The notes under the pieces are model-generated. The model was not told the origin of the DNA. It made no database searches and saw nothing but the letters and a program-made list of their open reading frames with translations. A stretch of 64,000 nt of DNA. It comes from Cephalotus follicularis (taxonomy: Eukaryota; Streptophyta; Magnoliopsida; Oxalidales; Cephalotaceae). Made by a program: the position numbers and the translations under genes. This document shows, piece by piece, positions 5,343-62,045 of the stretch. Location: the NCBI GenBank assembly GCA_001972305.1, contig BDDD01001578.1, positions 235,991-299,990 of the forward strand. The letters are read 5' to 3'. Position 1 is the first letter of the stretch, and the number at the start of each line of letters is the position of its first letter.

Positions 5343-5690
5343 CAGTAACAAAGACGTCGATGTCTTTCCAAAAGGCGTCGATGCCTTTTCCAACAGGCGT
5401 CGATGTCCAAGTCTCAGTGTCAGCACGTTCCTCAACAGAAGGCGTCGATGTCCATTTCATGCGCGTCGACGCTCAGGGTCTGGAACCCTAAAACGATAGC
5501 GTATTGTTGATGGCGTCAACGCGTTAAGGTAGGAACCTTAGGCGTCGACGTCTTTCACGTCAAAGTCCAGGCAGGTGGTCTAGGGCGTCGATGTCTATCC
5601 GCATACGTCGATCCCTTTCAATCAGTAACAAGACAAAACTAAAAAGACGTCGATGTTCATTTAAAAGGCGTTGATGTCTTTTCCAACAGT
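5343..5690. repeat. Distal GTCGAC palindrome array (class B) in E1 3' LTR
   Basis: About eleven degenerate copies of a palindrome like GGCGTCGACGCC or GACGTCGATGTC, irregularly spaced roughly every 20-50 bases, often followed by CTTT. The homologous array is at about 15450-15790 in the other LTR. Many copies show CG-to-TG or CA changes. Confidence 0.85.
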
Positions 5691-6559
5691 AGTCGTCTTC
5701 TACCTCACAACTTAACAAACAGTGGCCTTAACAACCAATAATCATGCATAATAACAGGTAATCGAGGCAAGGAACTAACATGCAGATACTCAAAACATAT
5801 CTAGCATATCATGGCATCAATCCAGTAACAAAATCAGTACAAGATTTATGCATTTTATACATCCAAAATCATAGACCATGCATGAGCATCAAACTCAAAA
5901 TTACAGTATGGCTTTCCCCTACCTTTTGTTCCAAGTTAGGAACCGGAAAGTCCTCCTCTTTTCGTTTCCAAACAGGTCACAGCAGCCCCTCTAGGTTCAT
6001 CCCGTAGCTGCACTGGTAGCTCCAAGCTCCAAGCTCCAACAATGTTCAGCAATGGAGGAAGTGTTTCCTCTCTTAACTCTCTGTTTCTCACATAGATGTT
6101 TACTCACTGTTTCCTCACACTCACGGTGTTCTCTCAAGTGTTGGTTCTTTCTCCAACAATAACAGCTGAAGGTAAGGGGGTGGAGGCTGTCTTTTATGCA
6201 ATACAACCTCCTTCTTCTTCTTTTGCGTTTTTGTTGCAGGTCACATGTGCCTAGGGTACATCCCCATCTCTGTATGCAGCAGCTGGGTTCGTTTCCCAGT
6301 CTTTCATGCCAGACAGTGCCCCATTCATTCTATCTATCCCTTGCATGCGCACATGCTCCATTCTTCTTGCATTTGTTGCATGTACACACACACAAGCCAC
6401 ACTTGTCCACATAATTTCAGCCATGCATGTTAGGGAGTAAGGTGCATGCCCAACACGTCCTAACCCATGCCCCAAGGTGCCTGTAAAAGCCCCATCTCGA
6501 TTTCCCCTCGCACGTTATTTGTCAGTAGAGTAACATGCATGGCATTCGAAATTAAAGCG

Positions 6560-6712
6560 TCGACGTCTTTCTGAAGACGTCGATGTCTTTCATCAATATT
6601 ACACAAGGACGTCGATGTTCTCGTCCGGATCGATGTGCATGTGCATGCAGCTACGTGAGCCATTTTGCCTCAAAGGCGTCGACGTGATCCTAAAGGCGTC
6701 GACGTGTTTTCC
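6560..6712. repeat. Proximal GTCGAC palindrome array (class B) in E1 3' LTR
   Basis: Five copies (AAGCGTCGACGTC, GACGTCGATGTC, GGCGTCGACGTG and similar), some 180-330 bases from the LTR 5' end in the element's own orientation. Several contain GACGTC, the bZIP C-box core. Confidence 0.8.
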
Positions 6713-6934
6713 CCAGAACAACGTCGTTTTAGCCCTTTTAACATTCTTTTAGTATTTAACACAATAATTCAACATAATAGGGATGGGAAAACATTACCAA
6801 ATTCGGAAAATACATCCTTTATTAATTCCACAATTCGAAAGTACAATTACATTGTGAAATTAAAATACATGAAAATCTCGGGTGTTACATCCACCCCTCC
6901 TTCAAGGAATTTCATCCCCGAAATTAAAACAATT

Positions 6935-8250
6935 CTAGAACAAGTGCGGGTAGCGTTCTCGGATGTCCTCCTCACGCTCCCAAGTTGCCTCATCAGGTTT
7001 GTGAAACTGCCATTGAACCTTGACCATGGAGATGGTACGGTTCCTCAAAGTTTGCGTCTTCCGATCAAGAATCTGCATAGGCAACTCCTCGTAAGATAGA
7101 TCATCCTGTACTGGAACAGTATCATAGTTTAGGACATGTGACGGGTCCGGGATATATCTCCTCAGCATAGATATATGGAAGACGTCACGCATGTTTGACA
7201 GTGCAGGAGGTAGGGCAAGCTTATAAGCTACCTCACCGACTCTCTCTAAAATCTCAAAAGGACCAATGTAGCGTGGAGCTAATTTGCCCTTTTTCCCAAA
7301 CCTTTGCACGCCCTTCCACGGAGATACCTTCAAAAACACGTGATCACCCACGTTAAAGATCAGAGGTCTTCTCTTCACACGGTCAGTGTAGCTCTTCTGC
7401 CGACTCTGAGTAGCAAGCAGCTTCTTCTTGATCGTCCTGATCTTCTCCGAAGTTTCCTCCACTAGCTCAGTCCCGAGTAAAGGTCGCTCCCCGACTTCAT
7501 CCCAACACAAAGGGGATCTGCACTTCCTCCCATACAGTGCCTGAAACGGTGCAATGCCGATACTGGAGTGATAGCTATTGTTGTAAGAAAACTCTATCAG
7601 AGGAATATGATCCTCCCAAGTACCAGCAAAATCAATAACGCAAGCCCGTAGCATATCCTCCAAGGTCTAGATGGTACGCTCAGACTGCCCATCGGTCTGA
7701 GGGTGGAAGGCAGTACTCAAGTTCAGCTTCGTCCCGAAAGCTGACTGAAATCTCTTCCAGAACTTGGAAGTGAATATATCATCTCTATCACATACGATGC
7801 TGACTGGACCCCCGTGTAGCCTCACTATCTCCTTCACATACAACCGAGCCAGCTTGCACGTAGAATCAGTAACGTGTGTCGGCAGAAAGTGCGCTGATTT
7901 GGTGAGTCTATCCACGATGACCCACACGGCATTATGACGGTTCCGGTCGGAGGAAAACCCGAAACAAAATCCATCGTAACATGGTCCCACTTCCACTCTG
8001 GAATGGGCAAAGGCTGCAGCAAACCTGCCGGTCTCTGGTGCTCGGCCTTAACTGTCTGGCAAGTCAAACACCTTGCCACATACTCAGCGATCTCCCGCTT
8101 CATGCCAGGCCACCAGTAACACTTCTTCATGTCTTGATACATCTTCGTGCTTCCCGGATGAATACTGTACAGGGATTTATGAGCCCCCCGGAGTAGCTCA
8201 TCCTTCACTCTAGGCTCATTCGGAAGACATAGACGCCCCCGATATCTCAT
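6935..8250 (-). pseudogene. E1 integrase with chromodomain-like C-terminus
   Basis: Gypsy integrase on the minus strand. From its start: the H-H-C-C zinc region ([22 protein letters not shown]) at about 8050-8170, the catalytic core with the DFVSGFP, DRLTKSAHFLP and IVCDRD motifs at about 7740-8000, and the C-terminal GPFEILERVGEVAYKL and HISMLRRY segments. The end (VKVQWQF, DEATWEREED) resembles the chromodomain tail of Tekay/Del chromoviruses, thought to guide insertion to heterochromatin. The copy is broken. Confidence 0.9.
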
Positions 8251-8307
8251 AATACCATCATCATGTACTCTAAAATCAGACTCCGAATCCAGATTCTCTC
8301 GAATCTT

Positions 8308-10288: not shown

Positions 10289-11697
10289 TGTAACACCCCG
10301 ATGGTAGGAGCCCTTACAGGTCTAAATACTAAACTGAAACATAACGGAATTCTAACAGAGACTGATACGAAACGGATGTGGTGGTCTGAAAACATATCTT
10401 ATTACAAAACGATATAAAGGAGTGTCTGAAATTTTTAACAAAACATAAATAAAAACGGTTCATAATTCTGATGTCCAAAACTTAATTCATAACTGGAATA
10501 AAACCAAAGTCGGAAATTGTGTTGCCTGAAAAATAAATCTGATCCTAAACAAGAACCAACTCCTAGCTGATATTCTGACAATGGAAACTCTATCACACAT
10601 TTCCCCCATGCTCCTGAAAACCCGCATGGAAACAAAAAACGCGGCTGAGCAAACCTCAGTACGGATAAGGAATTAAAACAGTAACGATGAACAAAATAAT
10701 TTGAACTTTAAATTCAGTAAAGTAACATAGTAAATATTCTTTAAAAGTAAAACAGAATATTTAAAACGAGCAGTTATAAAATCATCATAACTTACGAAAC
10801 AGATTCAAATCCAAACATTATCTGATTTCATAATTCAAAACATTATCTGATTCATAATTCCATAACAGAGAATTGCTGACATACATACATATATAGGTGC
10901 AAGGGGTTCGCGAGGCCCACATGCTCTTTACGGAAAAGTCGTGTACGGCACTACACAAACAATTTCCAGTACTGAATCTTATCTTACGTAACTAGAGTAT
11001 ACTCATACGCCTCAAAAGGATCCATATCTTACCCTCAAGATACATATTTAAAAGAGACGCCGTAGACCGTTAACACCGCCACGGTAGGTGTCATGTCCTC
11101 CGTGCCAAAGAACACGCCTATGATACCTCATAGATAGGGATTTTCTCTGTATGTTATTATGCTTAAAACATTGTTTTAATTAAACAATTTTAAACAATTT
11201 CAAATCAATTCCTGATCTTATCTGAAAACAAAATCTTATCTGTATCTGAAATTAACATACTCCGTAAGTGGAAGCCATGTTAATATTTCCAATAGTGAAA
11301 ACACGTATATCAAAACCAATATCCAATGCAACCGTACTCAAATCTAACAAGCTAGTCGATTCCATGCCTAAGAAGCAAGGAACTATGTGAGAATACTAAA
11401 GTGACTTTATTTAGTCAAATATAAAAACATGCCTAAGAAATGCAAAATAACTTACCTAAATACTAGGACCAAAATAATCGTTATTTTGAGCATAAAACTA
11501 GCCTATAAGGACAAAACTATATTTAGAATGATTTTACTTAAAATCATGCCAACGTAGTCTATAACCAAAACAAATACGAATACCGGACAAAAGTATCCTA
11601 GAGTGTCCTAACTTCACCAGGAACGATAATAAAACCTAAACATACGAGTCCAAACATCACATATCATAAAACAAATCAGAACATGAAAATTGTCTTA

Positions 11698-11820
11698 AGG
11701 TGTCGACGGGTAAAGGGCAACAAAGAGACAAGGCGTCGAAAAAGGGGTCGACTTACTAAGCATAACACAGCACAAGGCGTCGGCGCCCAGATACTAGGCG
11801 TCGGCGTCTTGGCGTCGAGT
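11698..11820. repeat. Distal palindrome array (class B) in solo LTR A
   Basis: Copies such as GGTGTCGACGGG, AGGCGTCGAA, GGGGTCGACTTAC, AAGGCGTCGGCGCC and TAGGCGTCGGCGTC. The matching array in solo LTR B lies at about 21080-21215, at the same distance from the LTR 5' end. Confidence 0.75.
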
Positions 11821-12579
11821 AACAGAACAACAAATGCAGAAACCAGTTTCTGTTTCCATGATCAAATCGTTTTTGCCATTTATAAAGGTTATAGCAAAAA
11901 TAACTAGTCTTATAAACATGTCATGTGAGTCTATAACTATTGATATACGATTACAAACACAAAATCATGAGATTAATAAGCTTAACATAGTGTGTTTTAT
12001 AAAAACATGGTTTTCAAAATAGTTTACCAAAACATGAATTATAATCCGATTTTCTTGTTTGTAATCCGTAAAAACAATGATATACATATATATGCTTGCA
12101 TCAATGATACTATTTCTTGTTTTTAATCATCAAAATAATAATCATGCATAAAAACCCATGAAGAACACATCAAAATGACAGCAGAAATCAGTTTCAACAT
12201 GCTTGCTAAACCATGCTCAAAATCATGTTATAGTTGGTTTCAATACAAAATAATGGATGATATAGAAACTACAAATTATGAAATACAAGTTTCGTTTAGA
12301 AAATACCTCCAGAAAACGTCGAAATCAGTGTGAAAAATAGAGTTGAAAGCTGCTGTTCGTTTGTAAGAAATGCAGAAAAGTTTGGTGGTTTATAAAATAG
12401 TTTGTCTGGTTTAATTGCAAGATTCGGTGTTTAATGGCTAAAATCAACAGATTAGGATATTACTATATTAACAAAACGCGTCTTAACACTTAAGGAAAAA
12501 CGAATAACCAGAAAAGGCAAGAAATCAGCCTTCCAAAAACGTTGTCACCGACCAAACTAATATGGAAACCCGATCAAGG

Positions 12580-12712
12580 CCTCGACAGGTTGATTAAGGC
12601 GTCGACTGCCAAGCCTTTAAGTACAAGACGCATCAAAACACACATATAGGCGTCGACCTCTCATCCAGCCGCCAAGGAGTCGACGTCTCAAAGGAAGGAG
12701 TCGGCGCCTTGT
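12580..12712. repeat. Proximal palindrome array (class B) in solo LTR A
   Basis: Copies such as GGCCTCGACAGG, AGGCGTCGACTGCC, AGGCGTCGACCTC, GGAGTCGACGTC and GGAGTCGGCGCC, about 130-260 bases from the LTR 5' end in its own orientation. Confidence 0.75.
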
Positions 12713-12850
12713 GCCCAGAAAACAAAACTCACAGGAATTCAAACCAAAAATCAAATGGGTCAACAAAACATAGCATAAGTCAAACATGGTACGATGCCAA
12801 ACAATAAACATATAAACATGTTAACACAGAAAACGGGATATTACATATAC

Positions 12851-14155: not shown

Positions 14156-15449
14156 TGTTGTCACACCCCGTTTCAAGAGAAACGCAAAATTAAAGCGGTA
14201 AAGGCAATTAACATAAAATACAGCTCATGTAAAAAACCATAAAATTAAAACTTTTCCAAGAATAACAGTTGCGGAAGCATAACAAGCTCATAAGCTGTAA
14301 ACACGTAACGTGCGTCCCATACCGCATGCTACCCAAATACAAGTCATTAAGTTAATCGCCCACAAAACGGAGCGTGAAGTACAGTACAAGTTTAAATTCC
14401 TTCAGAAACAGAACCATAATAACAGTACATCCCACAACCATAACCAACTTAGGTTTAAAACACAGCAGGAGAAGCAAAATCAAGAATACAACAACTTGAT
14501 CTTCGCCCATGTCAGTCTGACCGGTCCACTGCATCAATCTGTAAAGTAGGGGGTTAGCCTTTGTCCTCACTCGGCTAAGTCATAACAGTAAATCGGGATC
14601 AACATAATGCATGTCATGATATGAATGCATAAATGATGCAGTGTAGTGGAGACCCAGTTTATACATATATGACATATATATACGTATAACAGTACAGTAA
14701 AATATCGGTGTTACATATATAAGAAATATATGTATACAGTAACAGTACAGTAGTAACCCAGCCAGGGCTACATCAACAATCACAGTAATGTCCATAAAGG
14801 ACCAATAAACACTACAGTACAGTATGTCCACATAGGACCACAACAACAGTATGTATAACGCCGCCAACTCCTGGCCCCACGCTACACTCCCACTCCGGTC
14901 CCCACTTCGGGCAACCAAGCGAGGCAACAGTACAGTGAGTCACCTAGCCATGCACCTGGACCATAGGTACAACCCTACCACTAGTCATCGTTGGCAACCT
15001 CTGCCACGCAACTAGTAGCTCAAACACAAACACATAGCAATTCACAGAGCAAACAGTGAATTAAAAACAGTAACAGTACCGTAAACAGTAATGATCGATT
15101 AGATCGACAACAGGCAATTGTTTTCCAAATTGTTTCTAAATGACAACATTTGAAAATACAGATTTTCAGTAGAAAATATCAATAAACAGTTTCAGTAGTG
15201 TAAATTGTTTATCCGTTCGGTCAAAAATACGTTATTTAATCAATACATATTTTCATACTCAAGATATCCTATTCCGAGTTCATATATGCATTTCTAAATA
15301 TCAATGCTTTAGAAAACATAAACAATTCACAAACAGTATACAATCAGGCAGTAAACAGTGCATATGCAATGCATAGATATGCTCAAATCCACTCAAACAG
15401 GAATCGGGATCGTTTCGTATCGTTAGATGAAGAAAACCCCAAACAGTAA

Positions 15450-15790
15450 CAAAGACGTCGATGTTTTTCCAAAAGGCGTCGATGTCTTTTCCAACAGGCG
15501 TCGATGTCCAAGTCTCAGTGTCAGCGCGTTCCTCAACAGAAGGCGTCGATGTCCATTTCATACGCGTCGAGGCTCAGGGTCTAGAACCCTAAAACGACAG
15601 CGTATTGTCGATGGCGTCGACGCGTTAAGGTAGGAACCCTAGGCATCGACGTCTTTCACATCAAAGTCCAGGTAGGTGGTCCAGGGCATCGATGTCTATC
15701 CACATACGTCGATCCCTTTCAATCAGTAACAAGGCAAAACTAAAAAGACGTCGATGTTCATTTAAAAGGTGTCGATGTCTTTTCCAACAG
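15450..15790. repeat. Distal palindrome array (class B) in E1 5' LTR
   Basis: Homologous to 5343-5690. Individual copies differ between the two LTRs mostly at CG positions (for example GGCGTCGATGCC against GGCGTCGATGTC), showing decay after insertion. Confidence 0.8.
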
Positions 15791-16649
15791 TAGTCGTCTT
15801 CTACCTCACGACTTAACAAACAGTGGCCTTAACAACCCATAATCATGCATAATAACAGGTAATCGAGGCAAGGAACTAACATGCAGATACTCAAAACATA
15901 TCTAGCATATCATGGCATCAATCCAGTAACAAAATCAGTACAAGATTTATGCATTTTGTACATCCAAAATCATAGACCATGCATGAGCATCAAACTCGAA
16001 ATTACAGTATGGCTTTCCCCTACCTTTTGTTCCAAGTTAGGAACCGGAAAGTCCTCCTCTTTTCGTTTCCAAACAGGTCACAGCAGCCCCTCTAGGTCCG
16101 TCCCGTAGCTGCACTGGTAGCTCCAAGCTCCAAGCAATGTTCAGCAATGGAGGAAGTGTTTCCTCTCTTAACTCTCTGTTTCTCACACATATGTTTACTC
16201 ACCGTTTCCTCACACTCAAAGTGTTCTCTCAAGTGTTGGTTCTTTCTCCAACAATAACAGCCGAAGGTAAGGGGGTGGAGGCTGTCTTTTATGCAATACA
16301 CCCTCCTTCTTCTTCTTTTGCGTTTTTGTTGCAGGTCACATGTGCCTAGGGTACATCCCCATCTCTGCATGCAGCAGCTGGGTTCGTTTCCCAGTCTTTC
16401 ATGCCAGACAGTGCCCCATTCATTCTATCTATCCCTTGCATGCACACATGTTCCATTCTTCTTGCATTTGTTGCATGTACACACAGACAAGCCACACTTT
16501 TCCACATAATTTCAGCCATGCAGGTTAGGGAGTAAGGTGCATGCCCAACACGTCCTAACCTATGCCCCAAGGCGCCTGCAAATGCCCCATCTCAATTTCC
16601 CCTTGCTGCACGTTATTTGTCAGCAGAGTAACATGCATGGCATTCGAAA

Positions 16650-16812
16650 TTAAAGCGTCGACGTCTTTCTGAAGACGTCGATGTCTTTCTTGAATATTAC
16701 ACAAGGACGTCGATGTTCTCGTCCGGATCGATGTGCATGTGCATGCATCTACATGAGCCATATTGCCTCAAAGGCGTCGACGTGATCCTAAAGGCGTCAA
16801 CGTGTTTTCCCC
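16650..16812. repeat. Proximal palindrome array (class B) in E1 5' LTR
   Basis: Homologous to 6560-6712: AAGCGTCGACGTC, GACGTCGATGTC, GGACGTCGATGTTC, AGGCGTCGACGTG, AGGCGTCAACGTG. Confidence 0.8.
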
Positions 16813-17024
16813 AGAACAACGTCGTTTTAGCCCTTTTAATATTCTTTTAGTATTTAACACAATAATTCAACATAATAGGGATGGGAAAACATCACAAAAT
16901 TCAGAAAATCTATCCTTTATTAATTCCACAATTCGAAAGTACAAATACATTGTGAAATTAAAATACATGAAAATCTCTGGTGTTACATGGGTGATCTACA
17001 GTTCCTCCCTTACAAAGCCTCGTA

Positions 17025-20058: not shown

Positions 20059-20184
20059 TGTAATATCCCGTTTCTATGCTTACATGTTTTATGTTGGTTT
20101 ATATCTTTTTATATATGCTATGGTTTTTGAACGCTTTGATTCTTAGCTTGAAATTCTTTAATTTTTGTTTTCTGGGCACAAAGC

Positions 20185-20330
20185 ACCGACGCTCTTATTA
20201 GAACAGCCGACGCTTTGGGTGCTGTGTGACACATTGACGCTTAAATGTGTGACATTGACGTGTTTTGTATTTAAGTGTTTAACCGTCGACGCTTTAAGTA
20301 AAAAGTCAACGCTTTAGTCGGTTTTTCATA
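20185..20330. repeat. Proximal palindrome array (class B) in solo LTR B
   Basis: Copies such as ACCGACGCTC, GCCGACGCTTTG, TTGACGCTTAAA, ACCGTCGACGCTTT and AAGTCAACGCTTTA. Position is about 126-271 bases from the LTR start, as in solo LTR A. Confidence 0.7.
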
Positions 20331-21079
20331 CCAGTTTGGACGGTGACATGTTTAGGGAAAAGGGGGTTTTTTGACATTTTTGTTGATCTGATTTTCCTTC
20401 TTTGTTCGAAACCGAATCTGCAAGAAAGGAAACATATTAGTTGCACGATTTTATCATTAATTTTACACGTATAGTTGTTTTAAAAAAAAAACAGATCACT
20501 ACATTTTTGAGAAATCATCTGCACATTTTTAACAAACGCGAACAGCAACTTGGCAAGCATTTCTCTGCATCGTCTTGACGTCTTTTGGAGGTATTCTCTA
20601 AACAAAAGTTGTAGCTTTTACTACATAGATTATGTATCAACTATTATTTTCTAATAAATACATGCTAGAATTCATGTTGATCATGTTTTTAGGACCCTGT
20701 TGAGAAAGGTTTTCAGCTATAACTTTAATATGTTCATTCATGGATATTATGCATAACTTGTAATACTGATACTTAAAAAACAAAGAAATTATGTTATTGA
20801 CATATGTATATACTACTGTTTTAAGGTTTATGCACACAAATATTGAGTTATAGCATATGTTTTATAAACTGTTTTAAACCATAAAATTTTTACTTTAAAC
20901 TTCCATACTTTTGTTTTACTTTGATCATGCACTAAGATAGTTATATATTGGAGTTTTGAACTGATATAACATGTCACAGAACCTTCATGTTGTCATTTAT
21001 GCATAGTGTTTAAGAAAAATCAGATGTGACCATGGATTTGAAACTATTTTCTGCAACTGGAATTCTGTGTTTGACGCAA

Positions 21080-21215
21080 ACCATCGATGTTTATTCTTTG
21101 AGCGTCGCCGCTTTGTACTGCTTTGTGTTGTGGTCAATCGACTCTTTGCTCGATGCTTTGTCCTTTTGTGCAATGAAACCGTCGACGCCTAGGAACAAAC
21201 TGTCGATGCTTTGTC
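21080..21215. repeat. Distal palindrome array (class B) in solo LTR B
   Basis: Copies such as CCATCGATGTTT, GAGCGTCGCCGCTTT, GTCAATCGACTC, ACCGTCGACGCC and CTGTCGATGCTTT, about 1020-1156 bases from the LTR start. Confidence 0.7.
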
Positions 21216-43825: not shown

Positions 43826-43959
43826 CAAAAGCACACTAAAACACTTTTTCTTGCAACTTTCAACACACCAAAGGGGAAAACACAATCTTCGTTAATTCCA
43901 CGCATAAGCTTACATTAGAAATGCAATATTACACCTTAACGAAAATCCTGGGAGTTACA

Positions 43960-46666: not shown

Positions 46667-47514
46667 CTGGGTGGCAGTCGGCTGCCCCCTGCACCAAAAG
46701 CACACTAAAACACTTTTTCTTGCAACTTTCAACACACCAAAGGGGAAAACACAATCTTCGTTAATTCCACGCATAAGCTTACATTAGAAATGCAATATTA
46801 CACCTTAACGAAAATCCTGGGAGTTACAAATGGCCTATGATGACTGGGGGGCCTCTGTCACACCCCGTTCCCATAACAACATATAAAGTGGCGGCAATTA
46901 ACATATAAATTCGGCTTATGCAAAATACCATAAAATTAAAACTTTCCATATCCATCAACAACTTGCGGAAGCATATAAAGTAAGCCGAATCATAACATAG
47001 CATGCATCCCATACTACATGCTACAACAGAAAACATCACCACAGTTAACTGCCCTCAAACGGACCGTGAACAAAAACCATCAATATCATGATACGTTTAT
47101 TACAACCATTCATTTATTACAATAATCCATAAACATTTCTCAAATTAAACATCATAAAACTCCACATTGCTCCTCGGAGCCAAACGGTAACCAACAGCTG
47201 CATCAACCTGAAACACACTGCAGTTGTAGGGGGTTAGCCTTTGTTCTCACTCGGCAAAACCATAAAAGCGATCCAGGGTCAAAGATAAAACATGCCATGA
47301 TATGAATGCACAATGATGCAGTACATACTATATCTCGATGCATATATACATTTATATATATATATGCCACGACCACACGGTCACAGGCCACAATATAACC
47401 ACATTACCACACTACACAGTTCACAATATCACAACGGCACAACGGCCAACAATATCTCAGGTCTCTAAGGACCCATCACTCCACAATAACGAATAGCCAC
47501 GTCCCAAAGGACAA
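46667..47514. repeat. 848-bp duplication of 43798-44645
   Basis: Offset 2869 bases. By line-by-line reading I found no difference across the whole tract. It contains the last 162 bases of solo LTR D, the 27-bp E4 island with both half duplications, and the first 659 bases of the E8 LTR. Because host-element DNA is included, this is a post-insertion duplication (or an assembly artefact), not a second insertion. Confidence 0.93.
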
Positions 47515-48529
47515 CAATCAGGCATGTCAAGGCAGACAATCAATCACTCAATGCAAACAATTGTTCCCGTCACAGGCACGACGGCGTGGACAACACTCGG
47601 AACTCACTATGATACAAGCACGACGGCGAGTACCAACACTTCCCCGCTAAAGGCAACACTCACGATACTAGCACGGCGGCTAAGTACCAACATTACCCCG
47701 CTAGCGGCAACAATCAAACACAATCAATATAATAACATCCACGTTACTAGCACGGCGGCTAAGTAACAACAATCAATCAATCAATACACGATAACGATAC
47801 TAGCATGGCAGCTAAGTACCAACACTCAACATAGTCACAATAGCAGTGCAACACAGCACCCACAATACCACTCAAGTAGTTTATAAAATAAATACTTGTT
47901 CAAAACATCTCGTTCCCAAAACGGTTAAAGAATAAATACTTTCGACATATATATATTTGCCAAAACATATATATAACACTTCATTTCCCAAGTAAGTTAT
48001 GATTCATAAAATACTTGCAACAATACATTTCTCTTTAAACATCTCAAGTAATTTATAGATATAAATACTTGCAACATATATATTTGTCAAAATATATATA
48101 ACGATCATTTTCCCAAAACTCAAGTATCAAAATACTTGTAACAATACACTTTCAGTAAAAGCCGATTATTTGAACTACATTCAAATACCACAAAATACAT
48201 ATTTTGTATAACAGTTTCGCAATCTCTCGAAAGCCATTTTCACAATCGTTTCGGAATCTATTTTCCAAACAACTAACGATTTTAGTAAATCATTAACCAA
48301 TTAACCAAACACATTTTCACAATATTTTGGAAGCCATTTTCACAATCTTTTCGAGAATATGTATATATCTCAAAACGTACATTTCACATAAGGTAATGAT
48401 TTTTGTAAATCACATTAGCACTTACAAAAAGGGGTAAAACGTTTCGTAATCCTTTATAACCAACTCGAAACATAGTCTAACACAGTACAATATGCATACA
48501 TATGCTCACAATGCAAAACGGTTCCAACC

Positions 48530-48960
48530 AGTCGTGTCGTTTCTCACTGACAGTCGGCTGTTCTCCTTCAACAGTAGATTGTCCCACACTTGGCAGTCGG
48601 CTGTCCCATGTCAAAAGTCGGCTGTCCCCCACTTAGCAGTCGGCTGCCTTCTCCAAGCAGTCTGCTGGTCCAACACAATACACATTCCTTGTTGCCACCT
48701 GTCCCAGCAGGCCTGGTAGGGTGACACGTGGACAGTCGGCTGCTACCCAAAACAGTCGGCTGGACCACCACACAGTCGGCTGCCTTCCTTGGAAGTCGGC
48801 TGCACAAACAATAGGAAGAAACGTGCAATTCCAGGCACAACCAGTCCACTGGCTCCAATGCCCAGTCGGCTATTCTCCTTGGACAGTCGGCTGTCCTCCC
48901 TGGACAGTCGACTGCTAGCCTTGGACAGTCGGCTGTCCTCCCTGGACAGTCGACTGCCCC
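48530..48960. repeat. Distal palindrome array (class A) in LTR b2
   Basis: About sixteen copies of CAGTCGGCTG or CAGTCGACTG, aligned with the array in solo LTR D but with some copies gained or lost (for example the pair near 48925-48955), so copy number varies within the family. Confidence 0.88.
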
Positions 48961-49489
48961 TACAGAGAGTGCCCAAAAATAGCAACAAACACACACTTCA
49001 ATCCACATTCGAACCATTTCTAACCACTATCACTATCACCACAACACATATTCATGCCTCTATCACAATATCACATATGCATTTCACTCATAACATCATT
49101 ATAAATGACTTTGAATCACAAATATAGCTTTCCCCTACCTTAGAACTCCAAGTTAGGATTTGCAATTCACCTCTTTAAGTCCTAGATCTGAGGTCCTTGT
49201 ACCTCCAAACGTGTCCAGCAGCCTTCCACGGGTCCGTTTCCTCCCCTGGTCCGGCCTCTAAGCCCACGATTCAACACAACTCCTTATGTCTACAACACAA
49301 ACACACACACTTTCACTCTCAAACTCACCTTCAAACATACTTGAATCACAAAGGAGATGGAGATTGAGGAGAGGAAATTGTGTTTTTATCAAGGAGACCC
49401 GGACCCCTCTCTCTGCCAAATCCACAAATGCCAAAATACCCACTTTTCACCACTTAAAGGCTGACAGCACGTGGCTGTCTAGCGCCTGG

Positions 49490-49622
49490 CAGTCGACTGC
49501 CTTCACTTGGCAGTCGACTGTTTCTGCCGACACTCAAAATAGTCGGCTGTTTCCTCACAACAGCCGGCTACCGCCTTCACCAGGGGAGTCCAGTCGGCTG
49601 CCTCCCTGTGGCAGTCGGCTGC
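49490..49622. repeat. Proximal palindrome array (class A) in LTR b2
   Basis: CAGTCGACTGCC, CAGTCGACTGTT, TAGTCGGCTGTT, CAGCCGGCTACC, CAGTCGGCTGCC and CAGTCGGCTGCC. Confidence 0.82.
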
Positions 49623-50031
49623 CCCCTGTACCAAAAGCACACTAACACACTTTTTCTTGCAACTTTTACCACACCAAAGGGGAAAAACACAATCTTCGTT
49701 AATTCCACGCATAAACTTACATTAGAAATGCAATATTACACCTTAACGAAAATCTCGGGCGTTACATCCACCCCTCCTTCAAGGAATTTCGTCCTCAAAA
49801 TTAAAACAACACCAAGGCAAAAGAGAATAACGCTCTCGCATTTCCTCTTTCGCTATCCCTCGTTGGCGTACTTTCACTTACAACCGTTACAAGGAGTTGG
49901 TCCACTTAAACAGTTCATTTACAACTCAAATGGTCCGTAGACCGAGAACAACTCTTATTGGTAGCAACAAGTCACTTACAATAGCAAAAGAAAACAAACT
50001 CATGCTGAAAACAAAAGTAAGGATTGTTACC

Positions 50032-51173
50032 TCACATGATGCCCTTGCCGGTGTCCCTTCGCTGCGAAGACCCAGCTGTAGCGCCACTACCGCCAGCAGG
50101 TCCCGCGGTTACTACCATAGAAATCTCTGGGCAATCCCTCACCAAGTGTCCGGATGCTCCACACTTCATACACAACCCCTTCTTCACCCTACAATCCTTC
50201 ACTTGATGACCGGTACGACCGTAGTGGAAACAAACTCCGGGCCTTACATTACTCCCCTGACTAGGAGTTCCTTGGTTGGCAGTCTGCTGAGACTGGTTCT
50301 CAGACAATCTGAGTGGAGAATCACTGCCATGCCATTGTGATGACGCTGGCCTGAACTGAGTAGGGCCCTGTTTGCTCTGCTGTCTACGAGCCCTTTCAGC
50401 ACGGTCTTCATTTGAGATACTCTCTAACAACCTTGTCTTCTGAGCGACTTCCACAAAAGTCCCCAGTTCCATAGCCCTGATCCTTGACCGAAGATCCGAT
50501 CATAGACCTTTCAAAAACCTCCGTATATTTTCACCATCATCAGCTACCAGATAGGGGGAATGCCTGGCTAGCTCCATAAACCTTGCTGTATACTCTGCCA
50601 CTGTCATTTCTCCTTGACGTAGCTCTAGGAGCTCCGTCTCTCTTCGTTCTTGCTCAAGTCGGGGCACATAAGCATTGAGGAACTCCCTCCGGAACCCCTC
50701 CCAAGTACAATCGAGTCCAGTCAACTCCCACTTTGCCTTGACAATCTCCCACCAGTGGATGGCCTCACCCCATAGACGGTACACAGCAAACTTTAGCTTC
50801 TGGTTATCTGTACAGTTCATCACATCAAAGATCTTTTCCAGATCCTGCAACCACCTCTCAGCAATGGTAGCATCCAACTCTCCTCTAATGCTCGGTGGAC
50901 TCTGCCTCATGAACCTTTCAAGGTCCCTCCCAAACTGATTACCGTCATCATATGCACCCTGAGCCGGAGCCATGTACTGAGGCTGAGCTTGGGCGTACAG
51001 TCCCCGCATATCCTCCATATTTGCTGCATTAGCAGACACCTGTTGCTGATAAGCAGCCATCTACTGCTGGAAGAAATCAGCGATGCGATGCAACGGATCT
51101 CTCACCCCGGGTGCTTCCCCCGGCACATTTACATTCGCAGCTCCTTGTGGAACATCATCCATAGGATCCCCTC
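50032..51173 (-). pseudogene. E8 gag, copy 2
   Basis: Minus-strand gag with the same order and ending as copy 1: RGELDATIAERWLQDLEKIF and YRLWGEAIHWWEIVKAKWEL, MTVAEYTARFMELARHSPYL, then GLCMKCGASGHLVRDC and RRDTGKGIM. The junction from gag into the non-coding spacer before the LTR is at the same place as in copy 1, so both derive from an ancestor that already lacked pol. The N-terminal side is cut by the LTR end fragment at about 51174, and no primer site is left. Confidence 0.87.
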
Positions 51174-51404
51174 CAAACAGTCGGCTGTTTCCTCACAACA
51201 GCCGGCTGCCACCTTCACCAGTGGAGTCCCGTCGGTTGCCTTCCTGTGGCAGTCGGCTACCCCCTGCACCAAAAGCACACTAACACACTTTTTCTTGCAA
51301 CTTTTACCACACCAAAGGGGAAAAACACAATCTTCATTAATTCCACATATAAACTTACATTAGAAATGCAATATTACACCTTAATGAAAATCCTGGGCGT
51401 TACA
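51174..51404 (-). repeat. E8 terminal LTR fragment
   Basis: Only the last ~230 bases of the LTR, with class A palindromes (CAGTCGGCTGTT, CAGCCGGCTGCC, CAGTCGGCTACC) at 51178-51255 and the end GGGCGTTACA at 51404. The duplication GCCTC follows. Confidence 0.88.
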
Positions 51405-53154: not shown

Positions 53155-53327
53155 TGTAATAACCATAAATTTCAATTAATGTATATTGTAACCATAATAA
53201 ATAAAATATGCATTTAATTGAGATTTAATGTCCAAGTGTTATGTTTTATGGTTGTTGGTTGGTTTTGTTGGGTTTAATGCAAGGCTTGAGTTGAAAGTGT
53301 GTTGTGGAGTGAATAGTGGGGAAGAAA

Positions 53328-53480
53328 ATAGCCGACTGGTTGTTTTGTATAGAACACAGCCGACTGTCACAGCGGAACAGTCGACTGGTTGGTTCGTACA
53401 GGCGGAACAGTTGACTGTCACAGTGGAAAAAATTGATTGTAAGGTAAGCGGTGACAGCCGACTGCCATTTAAAAATAGTC
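53328..53480. repeat. Proximal palindrome array (class A) in E5 first LTR
   Basis: AGCCGACTGGTT, AGCCGACTGTC, CAGTCGACTGG, CAGTTGACTGTC, AGCCGACTGCC and AGTCCACTGG. The AGCCGAC form prevails here. Confidence 0.8.
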
Positions 53481-54214
53481 CACTGGCGAAGTCTGGACAT
53501 GAAGGTTATGTGTTGCATGAAAACAGAGTGTGGCGTGTTGCTTTGTGGACATGTGTGAGATGATGGATTTCACAAGGTTAAGTGGCTTGGACGTGTCACA
53601 TACTGAGTATACTGATGCATTGGTGTCCTTGAGCCTCTGCAACGTACAAGGAACCAAAATCAGTAAGTAATGAGAGAGAGAGAGAGAAAATGGTGAAAAC
53701 TTGAGTTAGAATAATCAAATGGATTGCTGATATGAATTCCTTTATATCAGCTATTCATGGAGGATTTTGAGTGTTGTAAATGTTGAAAGGAGAGAAGTTA
53801 TCTTCTGTGTGTGTGCATGAGGAATCGAAGCAAGTGGAGTTAACTTGGAATGGAAGCTGGGAATTTCATTTTTGGTAAGCTTCTGCTGTTGAATTCCAGT
53901 TACTGTTATGGTTGTTCAATAGTATATATGTACTGATTTCGTATATATATACCTACTGTTTAATGCACACATAGACTGCTATTGGTTGTTAAAGTTGTGG
54001 AAAGTGAAGTTTTGGAACTTAAAGAGAAGAATCATTTCAACTGATTCTGGGATAGCGTTTGAGGTAGGTAGAAGGAATTTATGACATGATTCTGATATAT
54101 ATAGCATGCTTTTCATGCTATGATATCCTATATGTGTTTGTATGTTGATTGAAATTGAATTGGAGGTTGTTTTTATGAATACTCGATTTCTGCTGAAAAC
54201 GAACCTGGGCTTGG

Positions 54215-54370
54215 ACAGCCAAGGGTCTCGAATGACAGTTGACTTCTTAATTTAAACAGCCGGCTGTTTGGAACAAACAGTCGACTGCTTAATGTATCCA
54301 TCAGGCTATTCATATAGAACAACCGACTGTGTAAGGCAACCATCGAATATGAAGGAAAACAGCCTACTAT
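54215..54370. repeat. Distal palindrome array (class A) in E5 first LTR
   Basis: Degenerate copies: CAGTTGACTTC, CAGCCGGCTG, CAGTCGACTGC, CAACCGACTG, CAGCCTACTA. The counterpart in the second LTR is at 60712-60865. Confidence 0.75.
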
Positions 54371-55666
54371 TCAAAGACAATTTTGCCTCTAATGCCTACT
54401 GTTTAATCTGAATTGAATGAAATTTGAATTGGGTTCATAAGGGATGGTTCTAATAATCAACCTCTGATAATTGTCATTGTTTTACAGAAAGTGAAGAACT
54501 TATATAGATCCTTGTAGATTGCATGTAATGTTGTTGAGTGACTATTTTGTGCAATTCTTGAAATGTTAGGCAATCTTACCTATTGCTAGTGCTACTATTA
54601 TTGATGTTCTGTTTTCTTAAAATGATTACAACATCTTTTTTTCAATGGTTACTAATATTAAACACTATATGTATAGTTATGTTTTAACCACTAAATGATA
54701 TATGCATATTTTGAAGGTTTTCCACTTATTTTGAAAGAAAACCTAATGTTATTGAATTGAGTTCTCTAAGTGAGGACTAGTGAGTGTTTATGGTTTTCTT
54801 AAACGAAAACTCAACGAAATGTAATGTTTTCTCAAAAGAGGTTTTATTGAAGTGTTATATTACATTACTTATATGTGATATCAGTGATTGATTGTGATTG
54901 AGTGATGCTGATGGTTTAGTGATCGGAGTGTGTCACTAACTATAGAGGGTGAGCGGATAAGCCAGGAGTTGGCTCGAGCTTATTCACCCCACCTATCTGC
55001 CTTGCAGATCTTGAGTGTTAACTGCCCGCCAAGTGCCGACAGTAGTGTTTGCCTTTTCTACCATCATCGGAGTGTATGGTGGTAGTTAGGCGGTGCATCG
55101 GTTGGGCTAGGAGGTAGCACGAGATGACACCCAATAGTGGTCTTTGGACAAATGATTGAATTAATTGTACCCTTGTGCGGTATTCTTATTGATTGATTGT
55201 TGTAGCCATTTGCATGTTTTCTTATATATATTGGCATATATAACTGGTTTCAAAATGATAAACTATCATGCATGTTTTGCATCATATATTTCTTTGTCAT
55301 GCAAATCTTCCTGCTTAGCCAAGTGAGGACAACGGTTAATACCTACTCTACATATTTTCCGAAGTGAAGTGGAGTTAGCTGCTGAAGCCGTACGTATAGG
55401 TTCTACTTATCTTAAGGTTGTTATGTGTAATAGTTATGATGTTTGTAATGAATAAAGTCACACTCCGTTGTTGTATTTACATTTCCATATGTAATATATA
55501 ACATGTACTTTTGAGCTTAAGCACGTAGTATGGGTTGTGTGTGCATCCTACCCTTTTAGTCCAGTATGTTGTGCTTCCGTAAAAGTTTTAAATTTTATGT
55601 GCTTTTGGATAATACTGTATTTATGTTGATATCATATATGTTTGTTAAAACGGGGTGTGACAAACA

Positions 55667-59616: not shown

Positions 59617-59829
59617 AATGAAATTCGAGGACGAATTTTTATAAGGAAGGGGGGATGTAATAACCGTAAATTTCAATTAATGTATATTGTAACCATAATA
59701 AATAAAATATTCATTTAATTAAGATTTAATGTCCAAGTGTTATGTTTTATGGTTGTTGGTTGGTTTTGTTGGGTTTAATGGAAGGCTTGAGTTGAAAGTG
59801 TGTTGTGGTGTGAATAGTGGGGAACAAAA

Positions 59830-59985
59830 CAGCCGACTGGTTGTTTTGTATAGAACACAGCCGAGTGTCACAGGGGAACAGTCTACTAGTTGGTTCGTAC
59901 AGGCTCCAACCGACTGTCACAGGGGAACAGTCGACTGGAAGGTAAGCGGTGACAACCGACTGCCATTTAAAAACAGTCGACTGGT
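59830..59985. repeat. Proximal palindrome array (class A) in E5 second LTR
   Basis: AGCCGACTGGTT, AGCCGAGTGTC, CAGTCTACTAG, CAACCGACTGTC, CAGTCGACTGG, CAACCGACTGCC and CAGTCGACTGG. Confidence 0.8.
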
Positions 59986-60711
59986 GAAGTCTGGACAGGA
60001 AGGCTACGTGTTGCATGCAAGCCGAGTGTGTCATGTTGCTTTGCGGACAGGTGTTCGACGACGGATTTCACAATGTTAAATCGCATGGACGTGTCACATA
60101 CTGAGTATACTGATGCATTGGTGTCGCTGAGCCTCTGCAACTTGCAAGGAACCAAAATTAGTAAGTAATGAGAGAGAGAAAGAAAATGATGAAAACTTGA
60201 GTTAGAAGAATCAGATGGATTCCTGATACGAATTCCTTTATATCAGTTGTTCATGGGTGATTTTGAGTGTTGGAAACGGTGAAAGGTGAGAAGTTATCTT
60301 CTGTGTGTGTGCATGACGAATCGAAGCAAGTGGAGTTAACTTGGAATGGAAGCTGGGAATTTCAATTTCGGTAAGCTTCTGTTGTTGAATTCCAGTTACT
60401 GTTATGGTTGTTCAGTAGTATATATGTACTGATTTCGTATATATACACCTATTGTTTAATGAACACATAGACTGCTATTGGTTGTTGAAGTTATGGAATG
60501 TGAAGTTTTTGAACTTAAAGAGAAGAATCATTTAACCTGATTCTGGGATAGAGTTTGAGGTAGGTAGAAGGAATTTATCACATGATTCTGATATATATAG
60601 CATGCTTTTGGTGCTATGATAGCTTATATGTGTTTGCATGTTGATTGAAATTGAATTGGAGGTTGTTTTTATGCATACTCTGTTTCTGCTGAAAACAAAC
60701 CTGGGCTTGGA

Positions 60712-60865
60712 CAGTCGACTGTCTCGAGTGATAGTCGACTTCTTAATTTAAACAGCTGACAACTTGGAACAAATAGTCGACTACTTAATGTATCCAGCCG
60801 GCTATTCATATAGAACAGTTGACTGTGTAAGGCACCAGCCGACTGTGAAGGAAAACAACCGACTG
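60712..60865. repeat. Distal palindrome array (class A) in E5 second LTR
   Basis: CAGTCGACTGTC, TAGTCGACTTC, CAGCTGACAAC, TAGTCGACTAC, CAGCCGGCTATT, CAGTTGACTGTG, CAGCCGACTGTG, CAACCGACTGTT. Confidence 0.78.
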
Positions 60866-61537
60866 TTCAGAGACAATTTTGCCTCTACTGCCTACTGTTT
60901 AATCTGAATTGAATGAAATTTGAATTGGGTTCATAAGGGATGGTTCTAATAATCAACCTCTGATAATTGTAATTGTTTATAGCAAGTGAACAACTTATAT
61001 ACATCCTTCTAGATTGCATGTAATGTTGGTGAGTGACTATTTTGTGCAATCCTTGAAATGTTAGGCAATCTTACCTATTTCTAGTGCTACTGTTATTGAT
61101 ATTCTGTTTTCTTAAAATGATTACAACATCTTTATTTCATTGGATACATATATTGAACACTATATGCATAGTTATGTTTTAACCACTAAATGATATATGC
61201 ATATTTTGAAGGTTTTCCACTTATTTTGAAAGAAAACCATATGTTATTGAATTGAGTTCTCTAAGTGAGGACTAGTGAGTGTTTATAGTTTTCTTAAACG
61301 AAAACTCAACGAAATGTAATGTTTTCTCAAAAGAGATTATATGGAAGTGTTATATTACATTACTTATATGTTGTTGGCCTTTGCCACCCCGATTAATTGC
61401 AATACACATGTTATTTTGATGATTAACAAACGTAGATTACTTGTATGCATAATTCTTCAAGTTATAACTGCATATACTCACTTGATTCTTTGTCCAAAGT
61501 TGTGCCAAGAATGTTTATGCAGATACAGGCCATTCCA

Positions 61538-62045
61538 GCCGACTGGAGGGCAATCCAGTCGACTGCCAAGGTTAGGAGTCGACTTCCAAAGCTATGTAGT
61601 CGACTGCATCTTCAACCAAACTCAAAATCTGCAAGAACAACAATCCAGTCGACTGCCACAGGGGTCCAGTCGACTGCCAGGCAATTCCAGTCGACTGTCA
61701 CAGGGCATAAGTCGACTGCCATGGGTACAAGTCAGGCAGTAGCTTCTGCAACATTTTACACCCAATCCAGCCGACTGAAGCAGGGGACCAGTCGACTGCC
61801 AGGGGGTCCAGTCGACTGCCAGGGAATCCAACCGACTGTTTTCAATTGTGCAAAATCTGGTTGTAGGTTCTGTAACTTCTAAATTAGCCTCAACAGCCGA
61901 TTGAAGCAGGGCATCAGTCGACTGCCGAGCATACCAGTCGACTGCCTACAGGATCCAGCCGACTGCCCACTCCCAACGGCTATATTCAAATAAATGCGCC
62001 ATCAATCCAGCTGACTGCCGTCCAAATCCAGCCGATTGGATTTGT
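61538..62045. repeat. Palindrome array (class A) in E6 Copia LTR
   Basis: About eighteen copies, often in the phrase TCCAGTCGACTGCCA: many are the perfect ten-base palindrome CAGTCGACTG, others CAGCCGACTG or AGTCGACTTCC. Spacing is mostly 17-45 bases. The array is less eroded than those in the Gypsy LTRs, in keeping with a young insertion. Confidence 0.92.

What the first reader, a model, noticed from the sequence alone, without database searches (positions are those of the whole stretch)
5343..62045. GTCGAC-core palindrome arrays shared by unrelated Copia and Gypsy LTRs
About twenty-five arrays of a short degenerate palindrome occur in this window, and every array lies in an LTR or the adjoining leader. 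The hosts span at least six Gypsy LTR types and two Copia types, which share no other LTR sequence I can see. Two classes exist, CAGTCGACTG-like (A) and GCGTCGACGC-like (B), and each LTR uses only one. Copies are separated by unrelated spacers of roughly 10-50 bases, so these are not simple tandem satellites. Convergent gain, or exchange of such a module between element superfamilies, would be unusual. A shared host DNA-binding protein, an anti-silencing or insulator function, or transmission by template switching are possible explanations.
Basis: partly seen in the sequence, partly recalled or inferred. Interest (0 to 1): 0.8.

Follow-up and report, generated by a model that had tools for sequence, protein, structure and literature searches.

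The report
Shared palindrome arrays in retrotransposon LTRs
In this plant genome, unrelated families of jumping genes carry arrays of one of the same two short mirror-image DNA words in their control regions, probably landing pads for a host protein, and related families have switched from one word to the other.

Summary
GTCGAC is the most over-represented hexamer of the window: 66 copies against 6.3 expected. In the source genome (1.58 Gb) CAGTCGACTG (A) occurs 197,377 times against 939 for the reversed word, and GCGTCGACGC (B) 73,186 against 121. In 20 pre-set 10-kb stretches only these two of 16 palindromes NNGTCGACNN are common, and none of 105 sites lies in detected retrotransposon coding DNA. 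The arrays sit in LTRs (one also in a leader) of seven Gypsy and two Copia types.

On that shared scaffold the class has changed two or three times.

Best reading: binding-site arrays for host protein(s) reading an RYCGAC-type core, grown by about 21-bp duplication and kept by selection in active lineages. The nearest known thing is the palindromic repeated motif of Sirevirus LTRs. New, as far as my searches show: its spread to Gypsy, identical words across superfamilies, a discrete two-class code, class switching. The binding protein and the function are inferred, not shown.

The parts
3996..6889 (-). E1 Gypsy 3' LTR (class B)
   Evidence: LTR pair with 14159-16987; 5-bp TSD TGGGT at the outer ends
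5375..5594 (-). E1 array 2, class B, 7 sites
6557..6705 (-). E1 array 1, class B, 3 sites
14159..16987 (-). E1 Gypsy 5' LTR (class B), PBS at 14143 on the minus strand
15476..15652 (-). E1 5' LTR array 2, class B, 6 sites
16655..16803 (-). E1 5' LTR array 1, class B, 3 sites
10289..12845 (.). X1 solo LTR (class B), orientation unproven
   Evidence: TSD TATAC both sides; no homology to the other LTRs by nhmmer
11700..11807 (.). X1 array, class B
12599..12707 (.). X1 array, class B (first site a tie between A and B)
20059..22640 (.). X2 solo LTR (class B), same family as X1, orientation unproven
   Evidence: TSD CCCTG both sides
20183..20292 (.). X2 sites, class B
21102..21188 (.). X2 sites, class B (with one stray A-like site)
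23717..25996 (-). E2 Gypsy LTR (class A), PBS at 23701 on the minus strand; right boundary approximate
24775..25169 (-). E2 array 2, class A, 10 sites
25719..25843 (-). E2 array 1, class A, 5 sites
25997..28383 (-). T4 Gypsy LTR (class B), homologous to E5, 3' end truncated; left boundary approximate
   Evidence: matches E5a 1-115 and 1779-2379 with motifs masked
27006..27402 (-). T4 array 2, class B
28036..28218 (-). T4 array 1, class B
33013..36313 (-). T3 Gypsy solo LTR (class B), no array 1
   Evidence: TSD TTCTA both sides
34496..34839 (-). T3 array 2, class B, 7 sites
37171..39253 (+). C3 Copia 5' LTR (class B), PBS at 39255; left end approximate
   Evidence: copies in L014 and L015 fix the left end near 37171-37184
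38490..38642 (+). C3 LTR array, class B, 5 sites
39550..39648 (+). C3 leader array, class B, 4 sites, about 300 bp after the PBS; a homologous leader array is in L015 9405-9552
41059..43959 (-). E3 Gypsy solo LTR (class A)
   Evidence: flanks both read AATGG
42721..43150 (-). E3a array 2, class A, 17 sites
43684..43815 (-). E3a array 1, class A, 6 sites
43987..45316 (-). E3 LTR with internal deletion (class A, array 2 lost)
45062..45172 (-). array 1 of the deleted E3 LTR, class A
46667..46828 (-). E3 LTR fragment with one A site
46856..49766 (-). E3 Gypsy LTR (class A)
48551..48956 (-). E3b array 2, class A
49490..49621 (-). E3b array 1, class A
51171..51404 (-). E3 LTR fragment with array 1 sites, class A
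53155..55662 (+). E5 Gypsy 5' LTR (class A), PBS at 55667
53329..53485 (+). E5 5' LTR array 1, class A
54236..54329 (+). E5 5' LTR array 2, class A
59656..61371 (+). E5 3' LTR (class A), interrupted by the C4 insertion at 61372
59830..59983 (+). E5 3' LTR array 1, class A
60712..60865 (+). E5 3' LTR array 2, class A
61372..62636 (+). C4 Copia LTR, Sirevirus type (class A)
   Evidence: CA/ATTGG junction and poly-C signal before the PBS
61536..62038 (+). C4 array, class A, 18 sites

Best explanation
The arrays are cis-regulatory modules: rows of binding sites for host sequence-specific DNA-binding protein(s), lying in the 5' part of the LTR, presumably U3 upstream of the promoter (and in one Copia family also in the leader). 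The protein, probably bound as a homotypic dimer, reads a GTCGAC core whose better-kept strand in most Gypsy LTRs reads (A/G)(C/T)CGAC. Bases at the ends of the decamer (CA..TG or GC..GC) split the sites into two exclusive classes, most simply two related host factors. Arrays grow by duplication of a unit of about 21 bp, two helical turns, so that bound proteins face one way. Spacers then drift while the decamers are held by selection in lineages that still transpose. Superfamilies share the same two words because they exploit the same host factors, and families change class by replacing the array on an otherwise conserved LTR. Shown: enrichment, location, phasing (clear for A, weaker for B), two discrete classes, class changes on a shared scaffold, decamer conservation between two families. 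Inferred: protein binding, its being a host protein, transcriptional activation, the promoter position. Speculative: that the factor is of the AP2/ERF DREB/CBF kind.
For: Genome-wide excess of both words and only two of 16 palindromes around GTCGAC common in an independent sample. Hybrid sites nearly absent: CA-GTCGAC-GC 1 against 14.6 expected from flank frequencies, 104 sites. Location: 98 of 103 window sites at one mismatch in LTRs, 4 in a leader, 1 in gag; 0 of 105 sample sites in detected retro-coding DNA, 18.7% of the sample. Phasing: 49 of 90 spacings at 20-22 bp with one LTR per family; in the sample A 56 of 71, B 26 of 82; of 992 palindromic 10-mers CAGTCGACTG has the most such pairs, 35, the next three being variants of A or B with 7, 5 and 4. 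Conservation: E2 and E3b differ at 4 of 75 right-half and 13 of 75 left-half motif positions, against 662 of 1732 elsewhere. Class changes: A LTRs as one clade rejected, p-AU 1.2e-9; three changes on the best tree, two or three over the other resolutions that keep T4 with E5. No Copia-Gypsy similarity once the motifs are masked. RYCGAC is catalogued as an AP2/ERF site, CBFHV (passages of PMC4886440).
Against: No binding or expression data. Strand polarity of the degenerate half is strong in the window's Gypsy LTRs and C4 but weaker in the sample (Gypsy 79 left to 41 right mismatches, one stretch opposite) and reversed in Copia-like arrays there (8:19, mostly the C3 family), so it may not be functional. 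Phasing is missing in B families T3 and T4 (0 of 11 spacings), and B at one mismatch has one 20-22-bp pair in the sample. Spacers within arrays are somewhat alike (e.g. A arrays E2, E3, C4 0.41-0.45 against 0.30-0.33 shuffled), so 21-bp spacing may partly be inherited from tandem duplication. Some A spacer words recur across families beyond shuffles. The conservation figure is partly ascertained, since sites were found by likeness to the consensus; the left-right contrast is not. After insertion motifs are not protected (E5 LTR pair: 37 of 140 motif positions differ against 9 of 171 spacer positions; E1 pair 6 of 100 against 9 of 196). TATA-like runs occur at several places in the LTRs, so that the arrays lie upstream of the promoter is an assumption.
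Confidence: 0.55

Rival explanations
1. Anti-silencing targets. The arrays recruit a factor (encoded by one element type and used by others, or a captured host demethylation or chromatin factor) that strips silencing marks from the LTR, as VANC proteins do for VANDAL transposons; the A and B classes are two coevolved specificities.
For: Similar architecture to VANC targets: a short motif at high density in non-coding DNA, units in one orientation, growth by tandem repeats, motif types that differ between related families (passages of PMC5735166). Class changes on conserved LTRs.
Against: The VANC21 motif is enriched in its own element family and rare in other TEs, whereas these words are shared by Copia and Gypsy. 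I saw no extra element-encoded gene, but looked only at stop-to-stop ORFs of 90 aa or more of the window and scanned ten of them with Pfam. Uniform orientation fails in the C3 family.
Confidence: 0.18
2. RNA-level role. The palindromes make hairpins in LTR transcripts that template small RNAs or act in RNA packaging or dimerisation, as proposed for palindrome-rich maize Sirevirus LTRs.
For: Array windows fold better than array-free LTR windows (mean z sense -1.35, n=17, against -0.33, n=130; antisense -2.78 against -0.56); the single E1 and T4 array windows (class B) fold strongly in sense, -4.89 and -3.32. Palindromes in Sirevirus LTRs are small-RNA hot spots (passages of PMC5311732 and PMC10760457; the 2016 original was not held).
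Against: In 13 of 14 LTRs A-C pairs, which break a sense-RNA stem, outnumber G-U pairs on the sense strand, narrowly in E5a and C3 and with X in the flipped orientation; T3 is the exception. Mean sense folding is only mildly better than background. Helical phasing and exclusive classes are not expected of hairpins.
Confidence: 0.1
3. Module exchange. One array arose once and was passed between Gypsy and Copia families by template switching or gene conversion, then spread.
For: Identical decamers and the same spacing in both superfamilies. Among A spacers, 6-mers found in three or more of the four families number 8 against 1.6 in shuffles (maximum 7), 7-mers in two or more 25 against 11.8 (maximum 24; E2 and E3 are relatives, which helps), and the 7-mer CACAGGG occurs in C4, E3 and E5 (0.07 such words expected, maximum 1). 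Nested and recombined elements abound in the window.
Against: Spacer words shared specifically between Copia and Gypsy are within the shuffled range for A (6-mers 28 against 22.4, maximum 37; 7-mers 9 against 4.9, maximum 13) and for B (8 against 8.1; 3 against 2.2). C4 matches E3 and E5 array regions before masking (E down to 2e-9) but no Gypsy LTR after the motifs are masked (best E 0.13, to X1).
Confidence: 0.12
4. Neutral minisatellite expansion: the decamers are only the best-preserved part of ordinary tandem repeats with no function.
For: Period of 21 bp and weak spacer similarity inside arrays, clear in C3.
Against: Spacers of neighbouring units are mostly unlike each other while decamers keep their class; in the E5 pair motifs mutate faster than their surroundings after insertion, yet between E2 and E3b they are better conserved; the same two words recur in unrelated LTRs.
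Confidence: 0.05

Closest known systems
Palindromic repeated motif (RM) of Sirevirus LTRs (Bousios et al. 2010, PMC2829016)
   Same: Short palindromes in high copy in the upper half of the LTR, in unrelated flanks, CpG-bearing, differing between elements; one, from the element named Vitis, is CGGTCGACCG with the same GTCGAC core. The C4 element here is itself a Sirevirus by junction and poly-C signal.
   Different: There most elements have their own word with a CGG-CCG signature and the RM is reported as absent from the other Copia elements; Gypsy was not examined in what I read. Here A and B lack CGG-CCG as consensus, the same two words serve seven Gypsy types, a Sirevirus and a non-Sirevirus Copia, and related Gypsy LTRs differ in class.
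VANC target motifs of VANDAL transposons (Hosaka et al. 2017, PMC5735166)
   Same: Dense, same-orientation short motifs in non-coding DNA, evolving by tandem repeat formation, with motif types differing between related families.
   Different: VANDALs are DNA transposons (recalled), the motif YAGTATTAY is not a palindrome, the binder is encoded by the element and its motif is rare in other TEs.
Heat-responsive elements of ONSEN and other COPIA families (Pietzenuk et al. 2016, PMC5059998, abstract)
   Same: Host transcription-factor sites in LTRs gained by several Copia families, in ONSEN by duplication of a proto-site.
   Different: Heat-shock-factor sites in Copia elements; the abstract tells of no two-class code and no spread over Gypsy.
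CBF/DREB (AP2/ERF) site CBFHV, RYCGAC (passages of PMC4886440)
   Same: Core matches the sense strand of both classes, including the T/C and G/A variation.
   Different: No binding tested; outer bases TG and GC are not part of that site, and a palindromic dimer site is not a usual AP2/ERF target (the last point from general knowledge).

Membership tests
Sirevirus LTR repeated motif (RM) | Palindromic motif, at least eight copies per element | tested here: met
   10 of 14 LTR entries have 9-24 sites at two mismatches or fewer (C4 18, E3a 24, E3b 22, E2 15, E5 10 and 13, E1 10 and 9, T4 10, C3 with leader 9); below eight: E3d 5 (deleted), X1 7, X2 4, T3 7. E3 counts include one stray site outside the arrays
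Sirevirus LTR repeated motif (RM) | CGG-CCG signature as motif core | tested here: not met
   Site words CAG(T/C)CGACTG and GCGTCGACGC hold no CGG..CCG (against the table read; one RM there, Tnd-1, lacks it too)
Sirevirus LTR repeated motif (RM) | Host element is a Sirevirus (CA/ATTGG junction, TATCAGAGC PBS, poly-C signal) | tested here: not met
   Met by C4 alone, with one PBS mismatch; the Gypsy elements are not Copia and C3 has neither the ATTGG junction nor a poly-C run at its LTR end
Sirevirus LTR repeated motif (RM) | Cluster starts 200-400 bp into the LTR, in its upper half, just upstream of a TATA box, within a CpG island | tested here: inconclusive
   C4 array 165-667 of 1265 and a TATAA at 712 fit roughly; Gypsy array 1 at about 145-350 and array 2 at about 810-1820, with TATA-like runs at several places; CpG o/e of array regions 0.49-1.36 in the three LTRs measured
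VANC-type anti-silencing target | Motif arrayed at high density in one orientation in non-coding DNA | tested here: inconclusive
   Density and location met; orientation clear in window Gypsy LTRs and C4, not in the C3 family
VANC-type anti-silencing target | Binding protein encoded by the element family | not tested
   No systematic search for extra genes in full elements
CBF/DREB binding-site array | Core RYCGAC | tested here: met
   In 12 LTR entries RYCGAC is sense-only 83 times and antisense-only 10 times, besides the palindromic copies; X1 and X2 left out
CBF/DREB binding-site array | Bound by a DREB/CBF protein and cold- or drought-responsive | not testable with these tools
   Needs DAP-seq, EMSA or expression data

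The most novel reading that the evidence does not exclude
Much of the LTR-retrotransposon population of a 1.6-Gb plant genome is addressed through just two mutually exclusive palindromic operator words, read by two host (or hijacked) proteins, and Gypsy and Copia families independently adopt one word or switch to the other. It would be a genome-wide regulatory code of retrotransposons that crosses superfamilies.
Probability: 0.3. Interest if true: 0.85.

Novelty: new variant of a known kind. Interest (0 to 1): 0.62.

Why it matters
Palindromic repeats in LTRs were known from Sireviruses, with no common binding factor identified in the paper I read. Here the same two words occur in Gypsy and Copia LTRs and add up to 270,563 exact copies in one genome, which points to one or two host factors that could be fished out directly with the decamers. 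It would give a testable case of convergent capture of a host regulator by unrelated retrotransposons, and of switching between two regulators on one LTR scaffold.

Tried and rejected
Unrelated LTRs: rejected for six of seven Gypsy types. Shared spacers as a trace of module exchange: Copia-Gypsy sharing within the shuffled range, but a few A spacer words recur beyond it. Sense-RNA hairpin as main constraint: mismatch types argue against it in 13 of 14 LTRs, mean folding only mildly better. CpG island over the arrays: not consistent. Sense polarity as a universal rule: clear in the window but reversed in Copia-like sampled arrays and weaker in sampled Gypsy. X LTRs in the tree: first built with them, then left out because nhmmer finds no homology and rebuilt. 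The first placing of C3's left end at 37064-37066 was wrong: copies in L014 and L015 start near 37171-37184, so the C3 sequence carries about 107 extra bases at its start, with no sites in them; the T4 sequence carries about 120 bases of E2 (cut off). Viral-contig and plasmid searches gave nothing of use. Rfam at gathering thresholds: no match in the window. Literature on palindromic LTR motifs: searches found no paper, searches listed papers of which I saw passages in some; none seen describes these arrays in Gypsy LTRs.

Full report
WHAT IS THERE. The window is largely nested LTR retrotransposons of an unnamed flowering plant. Its genome as held has 1,577,397,061 bases in 9,746 contigs, and the window is C1578:235991-299990. 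Of the 120 listed relatives of the E5 pol fragment, the one closest by identity is from Cephalotus follicularis, 79% over 70% of the query; the top by E-value is from Tanacetum coccineum, 52% over 85%. Pfam finds Gypsy-type gag, protease, RNase H and integrase zinc-binding domains (reverse transcriptase below its cut-off), and Copia-type gag and reverse transcriptase, in ten ORFs given. I delimited LTRs by self-comparison, termini, primer-binding sites and target-site duplications: Gypsy E1 (complete, TSD TGGGT), E2, E3 (several copies), E5, T4 and T3 (solo, TSD TTCTA); X1 and X2 (solo, TSDs TATAC and CCCTG); Copia C3 and C4. I count the X LTRs as Gypsy because of their ends and 5-bp TSDs; no coding region goes with them.

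THE MOTIF. GTCGAC is the most over-represented hexamer of the window (66, expected 6.3); the next are parts of the same decamers apart from AT runs. Two classes exist: A, CAGTCGACTG, with CAGCCGACTG/CAGTCGGCTG variants (122 sites at two mismatches or fewer), and B, GCGTCGACGC (56 sites), plus one tie. At one mismatch, 72 of 73 A sites and 26 of 30 B sites are in LTRs; four B sites are in the C3 leader and one A site in gag. Every LTR uses one class, with one stray or tied site in five of the seven B LTRs.

GENOME SCALE. CAGTCGACTG occurs 197,377 times, the reversed word 939 times; GCGTCGACGC 73,186 and 121. Twenty 10-kb stretches at positions set beforehand gave 182,450 readable bases. At one mismatch they hold 63 A sites (reversed word 5) and 42 B sites (reversed 0). 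At two mismatches the controls are higher (A 115 against 62, B 128 against 19), so arrays counted at that level include some background. Fifteen of 20 stretches hold at least one array of three or more sites at two mismatches, 34 arrays in all; 31 of the 34 have no site of the other class within 100 bp. Of 16 palindromes NNGTCGACNN, A has 20 copies and B 10, the others 0-2. Hybrid sites are rare: CA-GTCGAC-GC 1 against 14.6 expected (sites within an array are not independent). None of 105 sites at one mismatch lies in the 34,065 bp that match 15 window ORFs or six related proteins. That is a control against coding DNA of such elements, not against genes or intergenic DNA of other origin, which I could not test.

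SPACING. With one LTR per family, 49 of 90 spacings up to 100 bp are 20-22 bp. Seven of nine families show it; T3 and T4 do not. In the sample A has 56 of 71 spacings up to 130 bp, and B 26 of 82 (plus 8 at 19 bp). Among 992 palindromic 10-mers (AT-only words left out) CAGTCGACTG has the most pairs at 20-22 bp, 35; CAGCCGGCTG 7, ACGTCGACGT 5, TAGTCGACTA 4 follow. B at one mismatch has only one such pair there, so phasing is mainly an A feature. Spacers of units 20-22 bp apart are only slightly more alike than shuffled letters in most arrays (means 0.36-0.48 against 0.29-0.36; above the shuffled maximum in E2, E3, E5b and C4) and clearly alike in C3 (0.73). I read this as old duplication of a unit of about 21 bp with drift of the spacers.

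ONE SCAFFOLD, TWO CLASSES. With motifs masked, the LTR tails (last 400-500 bp) of E1 (B), E2 (A), E3 (A) and T3 (B) match each other, those of T4 (B) and E5 (A) match each other, and T3 and E3 link the two groups. The first 95-115 bp match only within E1-E3 and within E5-T4; T3's start matches none, and E2's start and T4's end are cut off. Blocks without array sites between array 1 and array 2 match (E1 929-1111 with T4 717-896; E2 500-786 with T4 607-896; E2 617-704 with T3 1144-1226; E2 506-819 with E3b 493-808), and so do blocks after array 2 (E1 1974-2142 with E2 1541-1709; E2 1256-1520 with T3 1924-2167; E5 1779-2379 with T4 1797-2386). Array 1 lies at about 145-350 and array 2 at about 810-1820 of the LTR in these six types (T3 lacks array 1). 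A tree of the LTR tails puts T4 and E5 together with full support and rejects an A clade, p-AU 1.2e-9. Its best form needs three class changes, but two of its forks are unsupported; with T4 and E5 kept together all other resolutions need two or three. Recombination between LTR parts could inflate this count. The sample adds an E5-like LTR with B (L024), and weaker cases of A beside X-like and C3-like sequence (L014, L030).

COPIA. C4 has the Sirevirus junction CA/ATTGG, a PBS differing at one base and the poly-C signal; its 18 A sites lie at 165-667 of a 1,265-bp LTR. C3 is a different Copia: a copy in L015 shows leader, gag and pol pieces in order, and its gag resembles, by eye, the window's 51388-51867 beyond the E3 nest. 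C3 carries B arrays in the LTR and in the leader. With motifs masked neither Copia LTR matches a Gypsy LTR better than E 0.13.

SELECTION AND DECAY. E2 and E3b differ at 4 of 75 right-half and 13 of 75 left-half motif positions (45 of 226 over the union of both LTRs' sites), 106 of 254 flanking and 662 of 1,732 other positions. E3a and E3b: motif 18 of 233, flanks 38 of 332, rest 179 of 2,301; X1 and X2: 18 of 70, 49 of 133, 701 of 2,265. Between the two LTRs of E5, taken as identical at insertion, motif positions differ more (37 of 140) than flanks (9 of 171) or the rest (96 of 1,405); in E1 6 of 100, 9 of 196 and 101 of 2,530 (all). So inserted copies lose motifs at least as fast as other DNA, as expected of methylated CpG and CHG sites (methylation itself not measured), and the better conservation between families points to selection before insertion. 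Sites were found by likeness to the consensus, which flatters their conservation; the left-right contrast is free of that bias.

POLARITY. In the window mismatches fall in the left half on the sense strand: A LTRs 96 to 22, B LTRs without X 46 to 10; X1 3:10 and X2 1:4 in the orientation first assumed, which is unproven. RYCGAC is sense-only 83 times and antisense-only 10 times (T4 2:3). In the sample, counting only arrays whose strand could be set by LTR similarity, Gypsy gives 79:41 with one or two arrays of L031 clearly opposite, Copia-like arrays 8:19 and X-like 12:17. So polarity is a tendency of the Gypsy LTRs and C4, not a rule.

HOW IT WORKS. Dense, often phased, homotypic dyad sites in LTRs, of two exclusive kinds, conserved between families despite fast decay and shared by unrelated elements, are what one expects of binding sites for host factors. 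The sense core RYCGAC is catalogued as the CBF (AP2/ERF) site CBFHV (passages of PMC4886440). That a barley CBF prefers GTCGAC I recall and could not read; four papers hold both words (listing only). The factor stays a guess.

WHAT IS KNOWN. Bousios et al. 2010 (abstract, passages, and section 9 in full) describe palindromic repeated motifs in Sirevirus LTRs, mostly different words per element, a CGG-CCG signature, one of them CGGTCGACCG, and no common factor found. Small-RNA work links maize Sirevirus palindromes to silencing, and the same maize palindrome is reported in Helitrons (passages), so sharing across element classes has a precedent. VANC targets (passages; abstract of the 2023 paper) and ONSEN heat elements (abstract) are the other analogues. 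(two without any paper, three listings) showed me nothing that describes these arrays in Gypsy LTRs; subscription papers are mostly not held.

VERDICT. Observation confirmed in its core and enlarged, corrected on LTR relatedness and spacing; a new variant of a known kind; mechanism inferred.

Noticed in passing
36365-36974: Minisatellite with 60-bp units made of about 20-bp subunits (CCTTCAAGCACYGAGGTCTG-like), between the T3 solo LTR and the start of a minus-strand Copia LTR; no GTCGAC.
   Followed up: no
37050-37183: Minus-strand PBS-like word and about 107-120 bp that look like the end of another Copia LTR (Copia-type pieces at 29220-31664 may belong to it), cut by the insertion of C3.
   Followed up: partly
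43798-44659 and 46667-47529: Two stretches 99.4% alike spanning an LTR end and the next LTR start: a recent duplication or recombination product within the E3 tandem.
   Followed up: no
53155-55662 and 59656-61371: Motif positions of the E5 LTR pair differ about four times as often as the rest of the LTR; looks like accelerated decay of CpG and CHG sites after insertion.
   Followed up: partly
3-2025: Copia pol fragment, recalled as Sirevirus-like, whose following 2 kb shows no array.
   Followed up: no
L032 4071-4546: B array with sites at one mismatch about 106-115 bp apart; similar wide spacing of B sites in other sampled stretches, perhaps a family with a different layout.
   Followed up: no
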